Source of the DNA: Dipetalonema caudispina
Taxonomy: Eukaryota; Nematoda; Chromadorea; Rhabditida; Onchocercidae
Assembly: GCA_013365325.1 (NCBI GenBank)
Contig: JABVXV010000210.1
Location: 48,637-112,636, forward strand
Direction of reading: 5' to 3'
Length of the DNA: 64,000 nt
In this document: one piece after another, positions 52,212 to 60,065 of the stretch
Layout: every line of letters begins with the position of its first letter
Position numbering within the stretch: position 1 is the stretch's first letter
The notes under the pieces: model-generated
Database searches by the model: none
The model's input: the letters and a program-made list of their open reading frames with translations, nothing else
Told to the model about the DNA's origin: nothing
Program-made: the position numbers and the translations under genes

Positions 52212-54564
52212 AATACTCTCATATAGCGAAGATATGGCATTTAGAATCGATATATCCAAAGATGGTTATAATAAGCATATAATGAGGATTTTATGCTTTC
52301 ATGCGATAGTGCGTAGTGTGGTATAATGTTGTATCGTCAGCGTGTGTTACTATACACTGATTTTCCTCGGTATTCATGGCAGTTCTAGTGAAGGCTTCGT
52401 TCATCTTATTAATTTTGTGGGTACGACTGATAGCGCCTGATTTATTTCATTTAAAGGTGAAATTGCAGGAGGGGCGCAGCATGTTGTGAGTCATTCACGC
52501 ATCATCTACGTTGCTAATTGTATGGATATGGTTCATTTTTCTGTTCCGACATGCGAACTCACTTGTAATATAGACACTGTGATAAATTGCGTTTTGCACC
52601 AAGAGGTTACGTACATCCGAGCAACGTCTTATCGTGTATAACACAGAGACAAGTAAGAATCGACGTACCATATTTAGATTTTCGTAGAAACACTTTCTTC
52701 AGTCTCATTTTATTTATGTTTTTGTCAGAAATTTGTATTTCTACTTTTTATCTGTAATACATATTCCTGCGAGAGTATTTCAGGAATGCGAAACGCGCAC
52801 TAAATATATTTCACATGCGCGACGATTTGTATAAAATCATTGAATTGGGCGAAACAGAGGATTGCGATCAAATTCAAGTAAGTTTTGCCAACCTCTTTAG
52901 CAAATGCTTTTGTGTTTACAACAGCTTTTTGATGATTTGTCCTAATCCATCCAATCTTGTAGATTATATATATGTCTGAATGGTTTGTGTAGAAGTTGTT
53001 AGCAGAATTGATCATCCAATGATTGGCCACTTATATTTATTATTTGATTTTTGCAGAATGTATTACTACAGATGACAGGGAATAAATCAGTGCCACGTGT
53101 GGAAAATGTATTGGAGGTGGTGATGACAGGATAACTGCACAGAAAGATCGATATTTGAATAGTGCTGCAAGGAGCTGGTGTGATTTGATTCTGGTGGAGG
53201 TTTACTAGGCATTAAGCATTCATTGAAATTGATATTGCCATTTGGTACTTTGGTGATTCAATCGAAGCGTCAAATAACATCTGCTCAGTGTCAATTGCTG
53301 GATAACGGATATCATCCAAAGTTTGACTTTAATGCATTGTCAAACTAAAATTTGCGAATTTCACTCTCCAGAAAGATGCTCAGAAATAATTAAGACTGTT
53401 GTGAAGATGAGACCGGTTACCCGAAATGACTAGTGGTATTTTTGTTCCGATATTATCTGTGCATCCTTATGTAAGTGTGCATCCTTATCACACGGTTGCC
53501 GATCTTTCAATTTTTTAGGTGCAATACAGAAGTGAACGTATAACGCATACGATCGTGGAATGATAATTATTGTCTTTGAACATTCGTGATCAGCATTCTT
53601 CATCTCATTCATTGTCTTCCTTTCTTTTTACTGATCAATAATTAGTAGGAATGAAACATATAGTGGGTATTGTGAAGATTTGTTCTGCTTAAAATTTTGC
53701 TTGTTTAAATAATTGTATCCATTTTTCGAGAAATTCATTTAATATTTATTTTTATGCCTAATTTGTTCTACATTCTTTATACTTTTTTCGTCACATCTCT
53801 TTTTTTCATAATTGTAAAGTTGTTTTGTGATGGTGTTTTAGGACTACTGTCACTGCTTGATTATTGCCTCCGAGCCAAAAAATAATGAGATATTTTAAAT
53901 CATATTGGAGGTGTTGTTGTTATAATTATAAATAGGGAGAAATAAAACGGTTTTTAAAATAGGGAAGCATTGTCGTTCGTTCTGCTTGTTTATTAGCACA
54001 CCGTTTATGTTTTATTCGACAAGAAGGTGAACAAAAACAACAAGTAAGGGAGGTTGTCGACGAAGGAAGATGATTGGATAGCAAAGTGAAGGTGTATTTG
54101 TGTCAAGTGAGAAAGAGAATGGAAAAAGTGAATGGTCGAAATGTAGTAACCATTGTTACATCTTAATGTTTGAACTCATTTCTTACAACAACGAACCATA
54201 GTTTTCGGGATTAACACACCGAATTCCTTTATTTTAAAATTTTGACTACAGCTGAGACCGTAGCAAAAGCGACAGTTGTTGAACAAGTTCTATTATCGGT
54301 ATTCTTCCAATAACTCAGAAAAAGAATGAATCTATGAACCAACTGAGTGCTTCTGTTTCTAAAAATTATAAGATCACTAATTTTATGAGTTATAACAGTT
54401 AGTTTTTAGCCGGTATTGAGTAGCTGTGTAATGTACAATGAAGTTGAGTTGAAGTAATTTTTTGTATTATTTTAGAGCAATTTCTCCTTTAGCAAAGTGC
54501 ACTTACGGAGACGTCGGAAGAAATTTTCTCCATTTCAAAACTATCATAAAACTCGCACTTTCTA
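52212..54564. other. region between zinc-finger gene and SelS-glutaredoxin gene
   Basis: It contains a 66-codon open frame without a start (52441-52641), overlapping other short frames that might be terminal exons of the zinc-finger gene; the glutaredoxin pseudogene (listed separately); and about 900 bp of AT-rich sequence before the first exon of the next gene. An acceptor-like CTCCTTTAG at about 54,495 may be its trans-splice site. Confidence 0.45.
52783..53600 (+). pseudogene. partial, broken duplicate of the glutaredoxin gene end
   Basis: It matches 57022-57800 (last two coding exons, their intron and 3' flank) throughout, with substitutions and indels. The first exon copy is still open (NAKRALNIFHMRDDLYKIIE, donor GTAAGT). 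In the last exon copy a 10-bp deletion after VPRV removes the FIGG segment and shifts frame, leading to an early TAA. Further changes disrupt the tail. The exons with the CPYC active site and the SelS module are absent. It therefore cannot encode a working glutaredoxin. Orientation is the same as the parent, about 4.2 kb upstream of it. Confidence 0.88.
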
Positions 54565-57452
54565 ATGTCGCCGTTCAATTCGATTATCAGTAAGATTTTA
54601 ATGAAGGCAAGATCATCACTCATCTGGAAATTTTATTGTTGAATTTCTACATGTATTTCGACTTTTCTTGAATAATTCTCTATCACCCTACAATATAGCT
54701 ATTTTTTCTACTTCAGAACGGTAAAAAAAAAAAAAAAGTTAGAAAAACTTTCCTAACTTTTGAAGCTTTTGCAATTTTTCTTAACTTCATTCATTTAAGA
54801 CTTAACTTATTCAAAAAGTAATAAAATTAAGACAAAAACCTTCCAAAAATTTACAAATGTTTCATTTTAAATATAATTAAATTCATTGTTGAGATTCGAT
54901 AATGTGTGCTAATAGTATTAGCTTTTCACAAGACTAAAAATCATTCTATTTGTTCCAAAAATTTGTTTGCTTTTTCCATCTCATATTAAGCACGCGAAAT
55001 ATTTAACACGGTTGTTTGATTTTATTTTGCTCTTTAATTTCATCTTTCTAAGCTAATAGAGTAGATTATGTACTGGGAAGAATATCAAGACTTATTCATC
55101 TTGTTTGGCCCTTTTTTTTATGGATAAATTGAACAAGGGTATTGTCTTGTTGAACTACCATCTGAGCAGGATATGCATATTTTGCTAATTAATTTCCTTA
55201 CAATTTGTAATAATTCATTAGTGATTCCGAGTGTTCGATTATTTTCTAGCTTCAGTCAATAAATATTGTAGAAAGTACAAATTATTAATTTGACAGTGAA
55301 TTCTGATTTGAACAAAAATGCTTAATTATTTGCATAAACTAAAATTTCATAGATTTTAACCTATCCTGAGTAATCATCATTTCTGTCTACGCTACTGACT
55401 AAGATTGCATTTGATGATTAAAACAGATAATCCTCATATTTAATTTCAATTTAATGCTATTAATTATCATTGTTTTTTCCACTGATTGCTTGACCGATTG
55501 TCAGACAAAGTTGTATATGTGTCTTATTTTAAAAAATTATGTTGCCAACTGTAAATCATTGTGATCTTGAACGGGTTATTGGATAATATATATAATTTCT
55601 TGATTTATCAATTTGCAGATATTTTCGTGGAATACGGTTGGTTTATATTGGGAACTCTTATAGTGTTTCAATTCGTATATAAAAGGTTCATCTCACCGTT
55701 CGTTCAAGATATCCAACGAAGAAAGGAGTTAGAAAGGAGGAAAAAATTCGGTACGATATATACATTTTATTCATTTACAATGAGTAATCTATATTAATTT
55801 CATTAAATTTATAGTTTTTAAAATCGAAGCATAAAAAAACTGTGGAACAAATTTTCGATAGTTAGGACATCATAAGATGTCTTGCGAAAGCTTTTGAGGA
55901 CAAAATCATAAAGACGGTCATTCTAATCTATTAATATCACTATCGAAAATGATATCTATTATTAATGATAATAAGAGATAGAATGAAAAAGTAATTAACT
56001 TTCTTCACCTGTGTAGTTAGCCTTTGTTTTCAGAAGGCTTGACGTAACGCACTTACTTCTTGCAATAACCCATTAATTTATGCGTTTTCAATAATTATCC
56101 TTCATAATTTTTATTTGATCATTATAAAACGATCATCTTTTGCAAAGCAATGAATTATTCTGCTGAGGAGACATAGCATCTCCTATTTAGGTTAGCAATT
56201 TTTCGCTCATAAGAGCATATTGAATCGGAAAAATTTCAGTGTTTTAAAAATATTTCAGATACTGAACTACAGGAAGCATACGGGGATCGTATAAGAGTAG
56301 CTCGTGAACGAGCTCAACAGGAACTGGACAATAAAGTAGTTGAGGCACATAAACGTTTGGAAGTAAAGAAACAGGAGAATTTGCAAGACACCATGGCAAA
56401 AGTAAACGCTTTCAGTGAACCATAATTAATATCTTTTATTAGAAATATTTTATCAGGTTTCAGAAATGAATTTACACTAAAAATAATAGTACTGAGTTCT
56501 TTGTTTAGTTACTCTCATTGATTTTTATAATCGATTTCAGGCATCATCAGGAACATCGAAACTGGACATGGATCCATACACGTTTGTTACCAGTATGACA
56601 AGTTCAACTCCGGTTGTTGTTTTCAGCAAAACATACTGTCCATATTGCAAGTATGTTTTGATTATGTGAAACCATTTCTATAGCGAAATCAGAGTTATGA
56701 TTAAAAGATTCAGCCTGCATATTATATCAGTCATGATAACTATTGGGTAATATTGAAACAGATAAACAAATATGGTTCGTTAATTCAAGGAAATAGAAAG
56801 ATGCCCGTACTAGCGAAAAATAGATATTTGAAACTATTCACAATCTAATCAGTAGACAGAACAGTTTATTGGCTGGTATCGTAGATTTTTGTTTGAATGC
56901 TAATTTACAGTCATGTATGTCGTGCAGTTTCGATTCCAGCAGAAAGGTAGCTATAATGAATGGCGGGGAAGTGTTTATTTATTCTGCAGGCAATATTTTC
57001 ATCATATTTCTATTAATTCAGGAATGCAAAGCGAGCACTGAGTACATTTCGAATGCGCGACGATTTGTATAAAATCATTGAACTGGACGAAAGAGAGGAT
57101 TGCGATAAAATCCAAGTTAGTTTTGCCAGCCTCACCCAGATGTACGAGAAATAATTTGCCCGGTAACTAATTTAGCAAATGCTTCTGTGCTGTATTGCTT
57201 GCAACAGCTTTTCGATAATTTGTCCCCATTCATCTAATCTTATAGATATATATGTCTGAATGATTTGTGTAGTGATATTGGCCACTTATATTTATTTGCT
57301 TTTTGCAGGATGTATTACTACAGATAACAGGGGCAAAATCAGTGCCACGTGTTTTTATTGGTGGAAAATGTATTGGAGGTGGTGATGACACGGTAGCTGC
57401 ACAGAGAGATGGACGTCTGGAGAAAATGTTGAAAGAAGCTGGTGCGATTTGA
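54565..57452 (+). CDS. SelS/VIMP-like membrane protein fused to a dithiol glutaredoxin, 215 aa
   Basis: Six exons: 54565-54589, 55619-55750, 56259-56401, 56541-56650, 57022-57115, 57309-57452; all phases agree. Residues 1-100 resemble selenoprotein S/VIMP: a short N-terminus, a membrane helix (EYGWFILGTLIVFQFVY, about 13-29), then a basic, charged coiled-coil region (RIRVARERAQQELDNKVVEA). Residues about 110-215 form a glutaredoxin: active site CPYC (133-136), SVPRVFIGG with the cis-proline (181), and GGGDD for glutathione contact. Vertebrate SelS binds p97/Derlin in ER-associated degradation and carries a C-terminal selenocysteine; here a Grx domain takes that place. I infer an ER-membrane oxidoreductase with its Grx domain in the cytosol. 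Exon 1 (ATG..ATCA|GTAAGA) was chosen for its perfect donor and correct phase; it is only 25 bp. Alternative: exon 3 can read through to a TAA at about 56427 (tail KVNAFSEP), making two genes of an operon with about 110 bp between. Confidence 0.75.
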
Positions 57453-57906
57453 TTCTAGTGGAGATTTACAAGGCATTAAGCATTCATTGAAATTGATATT
57501 GCCATTTAATCAAAGTGTTGGATAATAGTCTGCTTAATGTCAATCGCTGATGACGCATACTATTCAATGTTGGATTTTAGTGCATTGTCGGACCAAATTT
57601 TGCAAATTCTACTGCCCAAAAAGATATTCAGAAATGATCAAGACTGTTGTAGGAATGACCAATTATAATGTGATATTACCAGTAAATATGCATCTTTATT
57701 ATATACATTTAATGATCTTCCTTTTTTGAGGTGCGATATAGAAGTGAACATACAGCGCATACAGTCATTGAATGATAATCATTGTCTTTGAGCATTTGTT
57801 CTTTCTTTTTATTAAAACAATTACAAAAATGTATTTCTATTTGAGTTAGAGAAAAAACAAGACTACTGAACTTTCCTCCATTCCTTAGCTGTGTATTCCA
57901 GCATAC
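57453..57906. other. 3' flanks of two convergent genes
   Basis: About 450 bp between the stop codons of the SelS-glutaredoxin gene (plus) and MTG1 (minus). Its left 350 bp is also present, diverged, behind the pseudogene copy (to about 53600). No gene was seen. Confidence 0.6.
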
Positions 57907-60065
57907 TTATTCATTTTTATCCATATAATCTAACAGAAGATCAATATCTAAGCAGTGGTCACGTAGTTTGTTATTCCGAAACATATTAATAAACTGTTTG
58001 GCTGCCGTATCAATGTCCCATCGTTCAGCTCGTTGTCCAGCAATGTAGCATTGAAAGCGAAGATCATTGGATTGACATATATCCAATAACACTTTCTGTA
58101 TATCATCTGATGGTCCATTATGCAGATTGAAAAACTCGACGTAAGAGTAATCACCCGTCCTGCAATTCTCCATAGAATTAAGCAGCTGATACATTTCTCA
58201 ATTTATCCCTAGCGTGGGTAAAGATATTGTTGAGTTGTTGTGCTCAGTGCAGGTTCAGGAAATCCTATATATACGGCCGTAATACGGCTGTTGAAAAATA
58301 CGGCTGTTGAAAAACAGAAGGATTCAAGTTTACCTGTTTAACCAGTATAGCAAGTAATCGGCAACGTAATGAACTTGCGTGGCACTTTCCAAAATAAGAT
58401 TGCACAGCGCTAGTTTCATTGCACCATCTGTATCCCGTGCTAATGGATTCAGTACCCCCGGTGTGTCTACTATGTATATTAGCGGCTGATCGAGAATTCG
58501 CACACGATTTTGGACACGTACTGTTACTCCTGGCCTGCTACCTAAATTCCTTAACTGATTCACATTTTCTTTTAAGCTATATAATTTAGCTATTGGATAG
58601 TTATTGAACTGAAAGCAACCTAATTGCTAAATGAATTAGATAGAATAATTAACTAACTAACTTTGTTAAAACTTTTTAAGAAAGACTCGCTGTCTAATAA
58701 ATGATTTCTAACTATGAAACATATTTGGTTCGCGTGAAACATTGTTTTCTAAATCACTGAACAATCTGACCCCCTAAAAATGGTTTTCTAATGTGTCTTA
58801 GTACTAACAGCTTCGACATAGTTTGAAGAACGATCTGTCTTCCTCGATGCACTTATGTTTTCTTTTTCGAAAGTTTACCTTCCTCTACAGCTTTCTGATT
58901 GTTTCCAAGATTGGCTAGTCGTAGTGAGTTGATCAATGATGATTTTCCAACATTAGGGATGCCTACTACCATAACCTACAACAGAGGAAATCCTCTGCAT
59001 ACATCAAAGTAAGAGGGACAATTTTAATGAATATATTTAACTAAATAGGGGCCTTGAAAACTCGAAACATGTATCAATTCTCGAACTACACCTGATTATG
59101 AATGCTAATCCTCTTATCCAAAAAACTGTAGTATGTCCTCTGATGGAAGTGCAGTTGAATGTTTTGATGTTAGCCGTAAAGTTGCTCACTTCAACAATCC
59201 ATCTTTTAAGGAATGATTAGTAGTTTTAAATAAAAAGAAAGATAACGGAAATACTAACCTGGTATTCCGTTTTCACAGTTCGATTGAAACGTGGTTCTTC
59301 ACGAAGACATCGTAACATCATGTTTTGTAAATCCACGAGTGGTTTCTTGAGACGTTTTTTGCAATTTGTCCATACTAAATTCGTCATGCCATTGTCACGA
59401 TAATAATCTTCGATTGGTTTTCTTAAATTGTAGTTCCGTCACAGTTAAAAAAAAATGAATGAGATGGTTTTATGGTCAGAATCTTGCATCTGTTTTAGAG
59501 AAATTATACTTTAATTCATAAAGAGTCAATAACGGGAAAATTTATGCTACACTGAATAACAGAATAGCAGTTCTAGCAAAGTTGAGAAAATGTCAAGTAC
59601 CAAGTGTGAACGTTCAAGAACATCCATAACAAACCTTAAATTGTTACTGATGAGATCCATTTTATTCATCACAAGAATATGTGGTCGTATGGCATATAAA
59701 GAAGAATAAAACTGAGGGTTGCGTCCAGTGATTGGCACGCGAGCATCGTGCACCTAAAAATTCAAAAAGGAAATATCAGGATCCCATGACACAATTTGGA
59801 ACATGGTCCATCATCAAAAGAGATGATTTTCCCGCAAAAAGGGGATCTCTTTACGAGAAGTTGAGTATGAGGAACAAATTTAAACAACAACTTGAAGCAA
59901 TAATTCAGATTGCCTATAGTGCCTACTCACTTCAATGATAAGGTCCATTGTTCTCAATTTACCGATCATTCGTTTCAACTGTACAGACATATGCATCGGG
60001 AACCAGATACGGAAATCAAATTTTGCAGGTAATAGGTAGCGTTCCCGACATTGTACCTTTGGCAT
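57907..60065 (-). CDS. MTG1: mitochondrial ribosome-associated GTPase 1 (circularly permuted GTPase)
   Basis: Six exons (minus): 60065-59931, 59753-59635, 59421-59259, 58975-58879, 58568-58334, 58159-57907; phases agree, 333 aa (human MTG1: 334). The G motifs are in permuted order: G4 NKMD (75-78), then G1 GIPNVGKSS (144-152), G2 in SRPGVT and G3 DTPG (206-209). This is the YlqF/MTG1 class. WFPMHM near the N-terminus matches the family WFPGHM motif, with Met for Gly. The protein acts in assembly of the mitochondrial large ribosomal subunit at the inner membrane, matrix side. The start is the ATG in exon 1 behind an acceptor TTTATTTAG, suggesting trans-splicing. The exon 5 acceptor has more than one in-phase option (58568 chosen; 58589 region possible), so a few residues after G1 are uncertain. 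The exon 6 acceptor (ATTGCAG) was fixed by phase and by the join YWLNR-TGDYSYVEFF. Confidence 0.92.

What the first reader, a model, noticed from the sequence alone, without database searches (positions are those of the whole stretch)
54565..57452. SelS/VIMP membrane module joined to a glutaredoxin domain in one gene
Seen: six exons with consistent phases link a membrane helix plus charged coiled coil, resembling selenoprotein S, to a complete dithiol glutaredoxin (CPYC, SVPRVFIGG, GGGDD). Known: vertebrate SelS (VIMP) is an ER-membrane partner of p97 and Derlins whose C-terminal selenocysteine gives it reductase activity; many nematodes have reduced selenoprotein sets. Inference: a whole Grx domain replaces the Sec tail as the redox module, making a membrane-anchored, p97-linked glutathione-dependent reductase. 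I do not know whether this architecture has been described in other nematodes.
Basis: partly seen in the sequence, partly recalled or inferred. Interest (0 to 1): 0.8.

Follow-up and report, generated by a model that had tools for sequence, protein, structure and literature searches.

The report
Nematode selenoprotein S–glutaredoxin fusion protein
A filarial worm gene joins the membrane anchor of selenoprotein S, a protein of the endoplasmic reticulum's waste-disposal machinery, to a complete glutathione-type redox enzyme domain, and the same joined protein occurs in many other roundworms, where the enzyme domain sits in the place of the usual selenium-containing tail.

Summary
Six exons (54565-57452, +) splice in frame into 215 aa with a SelS module (PF06936, 33.0 bits, cut-off 29.8) and a complete CPYC glutaredoxin (60.5 bits). 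It is unlikely to be an operon misread: 26 of the listed database proteins carry both domains, from 18 named nematodes (Plectus to hookworms, Ascaris, filariae) and 8 unnamed sources, 6 of these as uninterrupted frames on contigs of 1.7 kb or less. The Plectus SelS match is unambiguous (68.3 bits), with an exact p97-binding motif. Fused Grx domains group apart from soluble nematode Grx, with one mite sequence inside the group. Fusions leave the SelS profile at 112-139 of 192, so Grx stands where the redox tail was. The p97 link is weaker: strict motif in 1 of 25 fusions, contact residue R86 in 25 of 25. Most likely an ER-anchored, cytosol-facing, glutathione-dependent reductase at the retrotranslocation site; activity is untested. 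I found no paper describing the pair.

The parts
54565..54589 (+). Exon 1 (MSPFNSII), start codon; least certain exon
   Evidence: In frame with GT donor; supported by D. immitis P0006 MWQFDSIIN; other filarial models start differently
55619..55750 (+). Exon 2: YGW motif, single membrane helix and start of the charged helix
   Evidence: hydropathy peak at residues 7-28
55619..55680 (+). Membrane helix, residues about 9-29; net charge -1 before it (residues 1-14) and +6 after it (30-52), predicting N-terminus in the ER lumen and C-terminus in the cytosol
   Evidence: Kyte-Doolittle and charge count; topology is inference by the positive-inside rule
56259..56401 (+). Exon 3: cytosolic SelS helix
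   Evidence: modelled as one helix 2-99 in the D. immitis orthologue
56279..56338 (+). Residues 60-79, aligned to human VIMP 78-97, the strip that contacts p97
   Evidence: register; contact residues from PMC5725882 section 11
56402..56425 (+). Read-through beyond the exon 3 donor to TAA (VNAFSEP*), probably former exon; would give a SelS-only product if the intron were kept
   Evidence: resembles Setaria P0011 linker by eye
56541..56650 (+). Exon 4: linker, first Grx strand and CPYC
56637..56648 (+). CPYC active site, residues 133-136
   Evidence: sequence; first Cys in 25 of 25 fusions, second in 21 of 25
57022..57115 (+). Exon 5: Grx core
57309..57452 (+). Exon 6: SVPRVFIGG, GGGDD, C-terminus and TGA stop
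56613..57431 (+). Complete glutaredoxin domain, residues 125-209 (over exons 4-6)
   Evidence: NCBIfam GRX_euk 107.8 bits
52776..53587 (+). Decayed upstream copy of exons 5-6 and 3' flank, about 70% identical DNA, with a 10-base gap that breaks the exon 6 frame

Best explanation
One gene encodes a single-pass ER membrane protein of selenoprotein S (VIMP) descent in which the disordered, redox-active C-terminal tail has been replaced by a folded classical glutaredoxin. Shown by sequence: continuous frame, both domains, conservation of the pair across chromadorean nematodes, intact catalytic Cys, Lys, cis-Pro and GG-type residues. Inferred: N-terminus in the lumen and Grx in the cytosol; the SelS helix brings the protein to the Derlin/p97 retrotranslocation site; with GSH as electron source the Grx removes glutathione from, or reduces disulfides in, proteins at that site. 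Because 4 of 25 fusions keep only the first active-site Cys, the shared chemistry is most likely monothiol deglutathionylation of mixed disulfides rather than dithiol disulfide reduction.
For: In-frame six-exon gene. Both Pfam domains over cut-off here, and both precomputed in 26 distinct listed proteins: 17 of 120 listed (202 found) plus 9 new of 120 listed (393 found). The 18 named ones are all nematode genera. Of the 8 unnamed ones, 6 lie on contigs of 906-1700 bases as uninterrupted frames of 221-264 aa, as expected of transcripts. Plectus P0129: SelS 68.3 bits over profile positions 3-136 of 192, Grx 59.1 bits, exact VIM RQQAVEAARMR. In 25 fused rows R86 is kept in 25, a hydrophobic residue at L82 in 25, a basic residue at K88 in 21. 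First active-site Cys, the FSK-type lysine, [ST]VP and G[GS].[DS][DE] are each in 25 of 25. AlphaFold2 model of the D. immitis orthologue: mean pLDDT 91.3, helix 2-99, disordered linker 101-112, then a Grx fold that matches the GSH-bound Grx 4i2u at E 1.7e-12, TM by target 0.92, rmsd 1.2. Charge -1 before and +6 after the membrane helix.
Against: No RNA, localisation or enzyme data for this species. The SelS score here is only 3.2 bits over cut-off, and 2 of 10 relatives scanned fall below it (P0001 26.5, P0126 29.0); P0004, P0010 and P0127 align over the half but carry no precomputed SelS domain. PDB sequence searches found no SelS with the window half and human SelS only at E 0.95-8.2 with Plectus or the profile, below unrelated proteins. 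The strict VIM is missing in 24 of 25 fusions, R78 is kept only in Plectus and K88 is Ala in 4 of 25 rows, so p97 binding may be weak or lost. pTM 0.52: the arrangement of the two parts is not predicted. In the Grx trees a mite sequence sits inside the fused group, and 0 of 200 bootstrap trees show the fused rows alone as one clade.
Confidence: 0.68

Rival explanations
1. Two genes in an operon: a truncated SelS ending at the TAA near 56425 and a downstream glutaredoxin trans-spliced at 56541; the fusion is a gene-model artefact.
For: A TAA follows the exon 3 donor, about 115 bases before the exon 4 acceptor, operon-like spacing (recalled from C. elegans), and exon 4 has an in-frame Met (MDPYTF). 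Teladorsagia has a SelS-only and a Grx-only model, both listed with a longest contig of 518,779 bases (P0200, P0075); Trichostrongylus P0201 is SelS only, on a 2,681-base contig.
Against: 26 listed proteins with both domains, 6 as uninterrupted frames on short contigs. The exon 3-4 splice keeps frame and phase, and there is no AATAAA/ATTAAA between. The Teladorsagia pair looks like one gene split by the annotation.
Confidence: 0.04
2. A real fusion, but the SelS half now serves only as a membrane anchor; the Grx acts generally at the ER (or another membrane) and p97 is not involved.
For: Strict VIM in 1 of 25; R78 lost in 24 of 25; the M89, L93 and V97 positions vary.
Against: R86 in 25 of 25, K88 basic in 21 of 25 and hydrophobic L82 in 25 of 25, in a helix whose equivalent in human VIMP (A69-E108) is the minimal p97 binder. 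The human motif is itself imperfect: RQEALAAARLK, Lys for the last Arg.
Confidence: 0.22
3. The gene makes two products: the ER-anchored fusion and, by trans-splicing or an internal start at exon 4, a soluble Grx.
For: Acceptor at 56540 and in-frame Met in exon 4. Litomosoides P0013 (139 aa) and O. flexuosa P0015 (131 aa) are modelled as Grx only.
Against: Those may be fragments of gene models; the own genome holds other Grx candidates, C111 (CIYC) and C752 (CPYC), so a soluble form need not come from here.
Confidence: 0.2
4. The TGA stop is read as selenocysteine, giving a C-terminal Sec-Phe.
For: TGA is followed by TTC TAG; two relatives end ..TCF (P0001, P0007) with Cys in about that place; the genome has a tRNA-Sec (71.7 bits, cut-off 47).
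Against: The two Rfam hits in 54400-58400 are weak snoRNA matches, no SECIS (sensitivity for nematode SECIS not controlled), and my own crude scan gave nothing convincing. Wuchereria P0008 ends ..SRF with Arg, and several relatives end ..AGAI. Simple stop-codon drift explains it.
Confidence: 0.02

Closest known systems
Selenoprotein S / VIMP (PF06936), e.g. human SELENOS
   Same: Short N-terminus, YGW, single membrane helix, long charged cytosolic helix, A-R core of the p97-binding strip
   Different: No C-terminal tail with Sec; the last third of the family profile is replaced by a folded Grx; the first Arg of the VIM is lost except in Plectus (25 rows)
Classical dithiol glutaredoxins (Grx1/Grx2 type, GRX_euk)
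   Same: CPYC, TVP-type loop with cis-Pro, GG motif, fold
   Different: Membrane-anchored through a SelS module; groups apart from the soluble nematode Grx sampled
Filarial TrxR with N-terminal Grx-like domain and flatworm TGR (PMC8914392, abstract and passages seen)
   Same: Helminth redox proteins made by fusing a Grx domain
   Different: No TrxR domain here; the filarial TrxR Grx domain is reported to lack the active-site motif and Grx activity, this one has CPYC
Yeast Grx6/Grx7 (recalled: membrane-anchored monothiol Grx of the early secretory pathway; Grx6 also appears among the PDB hits)
   Same: Membrane-anchored glutaredoxin
   Different: Recalled to face the lumen; anchor not of SelS type as far as I recall; here the cytosolic side is predicted

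Membership tests
Selenoprotein S / VIMP | Match to PF06936 over the curated cut-off | tested here: met
   33.0 bits against 29.8; Plectus fusion 68.3; 2 of 10 relatives scanned are below cut-off, 26.5 and 29.0
Selenoprotein S / VIMP | N-terminal single membrane helix with cytosolic helical segment | tested here: met
   Hydropathy and charge, AlphaFold2 helix 2-99 in D. immitis P0006; sidedness is prediction
Selenoprotein S / VIMP | Strict VIM RX5AAX2R | tested here: not met
   Absent in the window protein; 1 of 25 fusions (Plectus) has it; human SelS itself has Lys for the last Arg
Selenoprotein S / VIMP | p97-contact residues shown by mutation in human VIMP (R78, L82, R86, K88, M89, L93, V97) | tested here: inconclusive
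   Window: Y, I, R, R, A, L, V, i.e. 3 identical, 2 conservative, 2 changed (residues)
Selenoprotein S / VIMP | C-terminal disordered tail with Sec (or Cys) and Y-N-P-L type motif | tested here: not met
   Tail motif in 0 of 25 fusions; profile match ends at position 112 of 192
Dithiol glutaredoxin | CPYC-type active site with first Cys | tested here: met
   CPYC here; first Cys 25 of 25, second 21 of 25
Dithiol glutaredoxin | GSH-site residues (Lys before the active site, TVP-type cis-Pro loop, GG-type motif) and Grx fold | tested here: met
   25 of 25 each by motif; Foldseek best 4i2u E 1.7e-12 for the D. immitis model; the window protein itself was not modelled
Dithiol glutaredoxin | GSH-dependent reductase activity | not testable with these tools
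   needs recombinant protein
TGR / Grx-TrxR fusion | TrxR flavoprotein domain | tested here: not met
   No such Pfam domain among the 8 families listed for the 215-aa product

The most novel reading that the evidence does not exclude
In chromadorean nematodes the ER receptor for p97 carries its own deglutathionylase: a SelS anchor whose selenium tail was exchanged, before the split of Plectus from the other lineages, for a GSH-dependent Grx that keeps p97 (or substrates entering it) free of glutathione adducts, for example at the D2 Walker A cysteine (human Cys522) whose glutathionylation lowers p97 ATPase activity. The own genome keeps that cysteine in its best p97-like exon (GPPGCGKT).
Probability: 0.2. 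Interest if true: 0.85.

Novelty: new variant of a known kind. Interest (0 to 1): 0.62.

Why it matters
What the reductase tail of selenoprotein S does is, to my knowledge, a standing question. A whole clade that swapped this tail for a well-understood glutathione-dependent enzyme domain suggests that a thiol reductase is wanted at that spot, and names the likely chemistry. It also suggests a route out of selenium dependence other than Sec-to-Cys exchange, and gives a simple test object for redox control of p97 at the ER membrane. No named non-nematode sequence among those listed (120 of 202, 120 of 393) has the same two domains, so it looks like a distinctive nematode redox protein.

Tried and rejected
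Operon reading: judged unlikely on the fused frames elsewhere. Chance coiled-coil resemblance to SelS: rejected because the Plectus fusion scores 68.3 bits. Sec at the TGA: no support.

A family search of the own genome with PF06936 found nothing, not even this locus, because introns split it, so it says nothing on copy number. The full protein as query gave 11 matches: five for this gene, one for its decayed upstream copy, five for other Grx-like stretches, three of these at E 0.16-0.23. PDB sequence searches with the SelS half were uninformative by E-value; I used only for the register of the alignment to human SelS. Two papers on SelS activity were not held. Search for stand-alone SelS: 15 hits. 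Ten are fusions; P0200 and P0201 are SelS-only models of strongylids; P0202 and P0204 are unnamed; P0203 is a moth. The searches do not show whether Caenorhabditis or Trichinella keep a SelS: only soluble-length Grx of these (105-122 aa) appear in the listed rows, and divergent proteins could be missed.

Tree rows dropped: three rows (P0198, P0092, P0083) fell out because my motif filter missed them. One search took them back but left out the own C111 Grx. The mite sequence P0035 sits inside the fused group in both trees (long branch), and 0 of 200 bootstrap trees have the fused rows alone as one clade; holding them as one clade costs 0.09 log units, p-AU 0.495. The 25 fused rows are the window plus 24 relatives that I chose. 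P0001, P0002, P0004, P0019 and P0121 (near-copies or odd models) and partial models were left out. The tree uses 105 columns, so inner order is unsure.

Full report
What is there. On the + strand, exons 54565-54589, 55619-55750, 56259-56401, 56541-56650, 57022-57115 and 57309-57452 join in frame (start phases 0,1,1,0,2,0; all introns GT..AG) into 648 nt and 215 residues. hmmscan gives Selenoprotein_S (PF06936) at residues 6-92, 33.0 bits against a cut-off of 29.8, and Glutaredoxin (PF00462) at 125-190, 60.5 bits against 22.9; NCBIfam gives GRX_euk 107.8 bits. The SelS score alone would be modest evidence, so the case rests on relatives.

Relatives. A search of 5.8 billion proteins with the 215 residues returned 202 proteins at E <= 0.001, 120 listed, 17 of them with both Pfam domains precomputed. 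A second search with an alignment of 13 relatives returned 393, 120 listed, 19 with both, 9 of these new. Of the 26 distinct two-domain proteins listed, 18 carry a species name, all nematode genera: Cercopithifilaria, Elaeophora, Loa, Onchocerca, Dirofilaria, Ascaris, Anisakis, Panagrolaimus, Aphelenchoides, Nippostrongylus, Ostertagia, Haemonchus, Ancylostoma, Necator, Heterorhabditis, two Mesorhabditis and Plectus. Eight are unnamed sequences (jgi, lgn); six of these are uninterrupted frames on contigs of 906-1700 bases, which for a gene with five introns here points to transcripts (inference; the contigs' nature was not shown). The window is from a filarial nematode by these matches: 72-83% identity in the six filarial proteins that cover at least 94% of the query. 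Its genome has 78 Mb in 764 contigs.

Probably not an operon. The reading across it, MAKVNAFSEP, resembles by eye the Setaria linker MEKVNSPSGH, so the TAA looks like decay of DNA that was once coding, with the splice now upstream (inference). The intron has no AATAAA or ATTAAA, one AATAAT. Teladorsagia has a SelS-only and a Grx-only model, both listed with a longest contig of 518,779 bases, probably one gene split by annotation.

The SelS half is truly SelS. The Plectus fusion P0129 scores 68.3 bits over profile positions 3-136 of 192 and has RQQAVEAARMR, a strict RX5AAX2R motif, aligned without a gap to human SelS RQEALAAARLK (E 0.95, used only for register). Against: 2 of 10 relatives scanned fall below the Pfam cut-off. 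Two stand-alone SelS proteins, P0202 and P0204, match the profile to 189 and 192 of 192; a third, from a moth, only to 121. The fusions scanned stop at 112-139. The tail motif [YF][NL]PL[ST]G is in 0 of 25 fusions. So the Grx stands where the Sec tail stands in SelS.

p97. In human VIMP helix H2 (minimal fragment A69-E108) binds p97, and alanine at R78, L82, R86, K88, M89, L93 or V97 weakens binding (PMC5725882, passages and section 11). In 25 fused rows R86 is kept in 25; L82 is hydrophobic in 25; K88 is basic in 21 and Ala in 4 (P0025, P0027, P0028, P0125); R78 is kept only in Plectus. A loose 3-residue pattern (hydrophobic, R, basic) is found at the expected place in 21 of 25 rows and at only four other offsets in all rows together, so the strip is conserved as such, but binding cannot be claimed.

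The Grx half. First active-site Cys, the FSK-type Lys, [ST]VP and G[GS].[DS][DE] are in 25 of 25 rows; the second Cys is Ser in 4 of 25: Ascaris, Aphelenchoides, Necator and unnamed P0123. The D. immitis orthologue P0006 was modelled on a 29-row alignment: mean pLDDT 91.3, pTM 0.52, helix 2-99, disordered 101-112, then a Grx fold; Foldseek best hit is GSH-bound Grx 4i2u, E 1.7e-12. The window protein itself was not modelled.

Origin. Trees of 52 and 54 Grx domains (105 columns) put all 25 fused domains in one branch (99/91 and 99/93) together with one mite sequence, apart from the soluble nematode Grx sampled (100/96 in both trees), which include a soluble Plectus Grx. Because of the mite, 0 of 200 bootstrap trees have the fused rows alone as a clade; such a clade is not rejected (p-AU 0.495). 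One fusion before Plectus split from the rest is the simplest reading (inference).

Own genome. The full protein as query found 11 matches: five for this gene, one for a decayed copy of exon 5 upstream, five for other Grx-like stretches. One of these genes is a divergent CIYC Grx on C111; another Grx (CPYC) lies on C752. No other SelS was found, with the caution that introns limit this search. A tRNA-Sec gene is present (71.7 bits), so selenium use as such is probably not lost; filarial TrxR is a known selenoprotein (PMC8914392, abstract and passages).

Mechanism. Shown: architecture, conservation, intact residues. Inferred: a membrane helix flanked by -1 and +6 charge puts the Grx in the cytosol, where GSH is reduced; SelS ancestry places it at Derlin/p97; monothiol variants point to deglutathionylation. 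p97 is negatively regulated by glutathionylation of Cys522 in the D2 ATP pocket (PMC5389986, passages), and the own genome's best p97-like D2 exon (91% identity to the human stretch) keeps GPPGCGKT (that Cys522 is the cysteine of this motif is recalled); this makes p97 itself a candidate substrate, which is speculation.

Literature. Searches for the pair in 5.39 million open papers listed no paper that pointed to it; one search matched 1,593 papers of which 15 were listed, one search matched none. I read passages of PMC2375036, PMC6155587, PMC3316567 and PMC8914392 and saw no mention there. Subscription papers and preprints were not covered. The database rows already carry both Pfam domains and names such as 'Glutaredoxin domain-containing protein', so the sequences are public and a description seems to be missing.

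Verdict. Real, ancient, widespread in nematodes; a new variant of the SelS kind, not a canonical SelS, since the tail was tested and is absent. Function is well motivated and untested.

Noticed in passing
52776-53587 (+): A decayed copy of exons 5-6 and 3' flank of the same gene lies about 4 kb upstream, about 70% identical DNA, with a 10-base gap that breaks the exon 6 frame; tblastn found no clear copy of exons 1-4 there. Dirofilaria has two full-looking Grx models (P0006, P0012), which may be a separate duplication.
   Followed up: partly
57450-57458: The stop is TGA followed by TTC TAG; two filarial relatives end in ..TCF and one in ..SRF at about this place, so the stop codon seems to drift in filariae.
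   Followed up: partly
P0078, P0079, P0093: Bdelloid rotifers (Adineta) show a glutaredoxin together with PF10169 in one protein of 243-255 aa; could be another Grx fusion or a gene-model error.
   Followed up: no
P0016, P0023, P0123, P0126: Four fusions have lost the second active-site Cys (CAFS, CPYS, CPYS, CPFS), three of them in named nematodes of different groups.
   Followed up: partly
L018 (G000 C565:39561-39646): tRNA-Sec gene over the Rfam cut-off in this filarial genome (71.7 bits).
   Followed up: no
P0121 (Ancylostoma duodenale, 391 aa): A model with SelS-Grx-SelS order and the start of a second Grx, perhaps two tandem fusion genes joined by the annotation.
   Followed up: no
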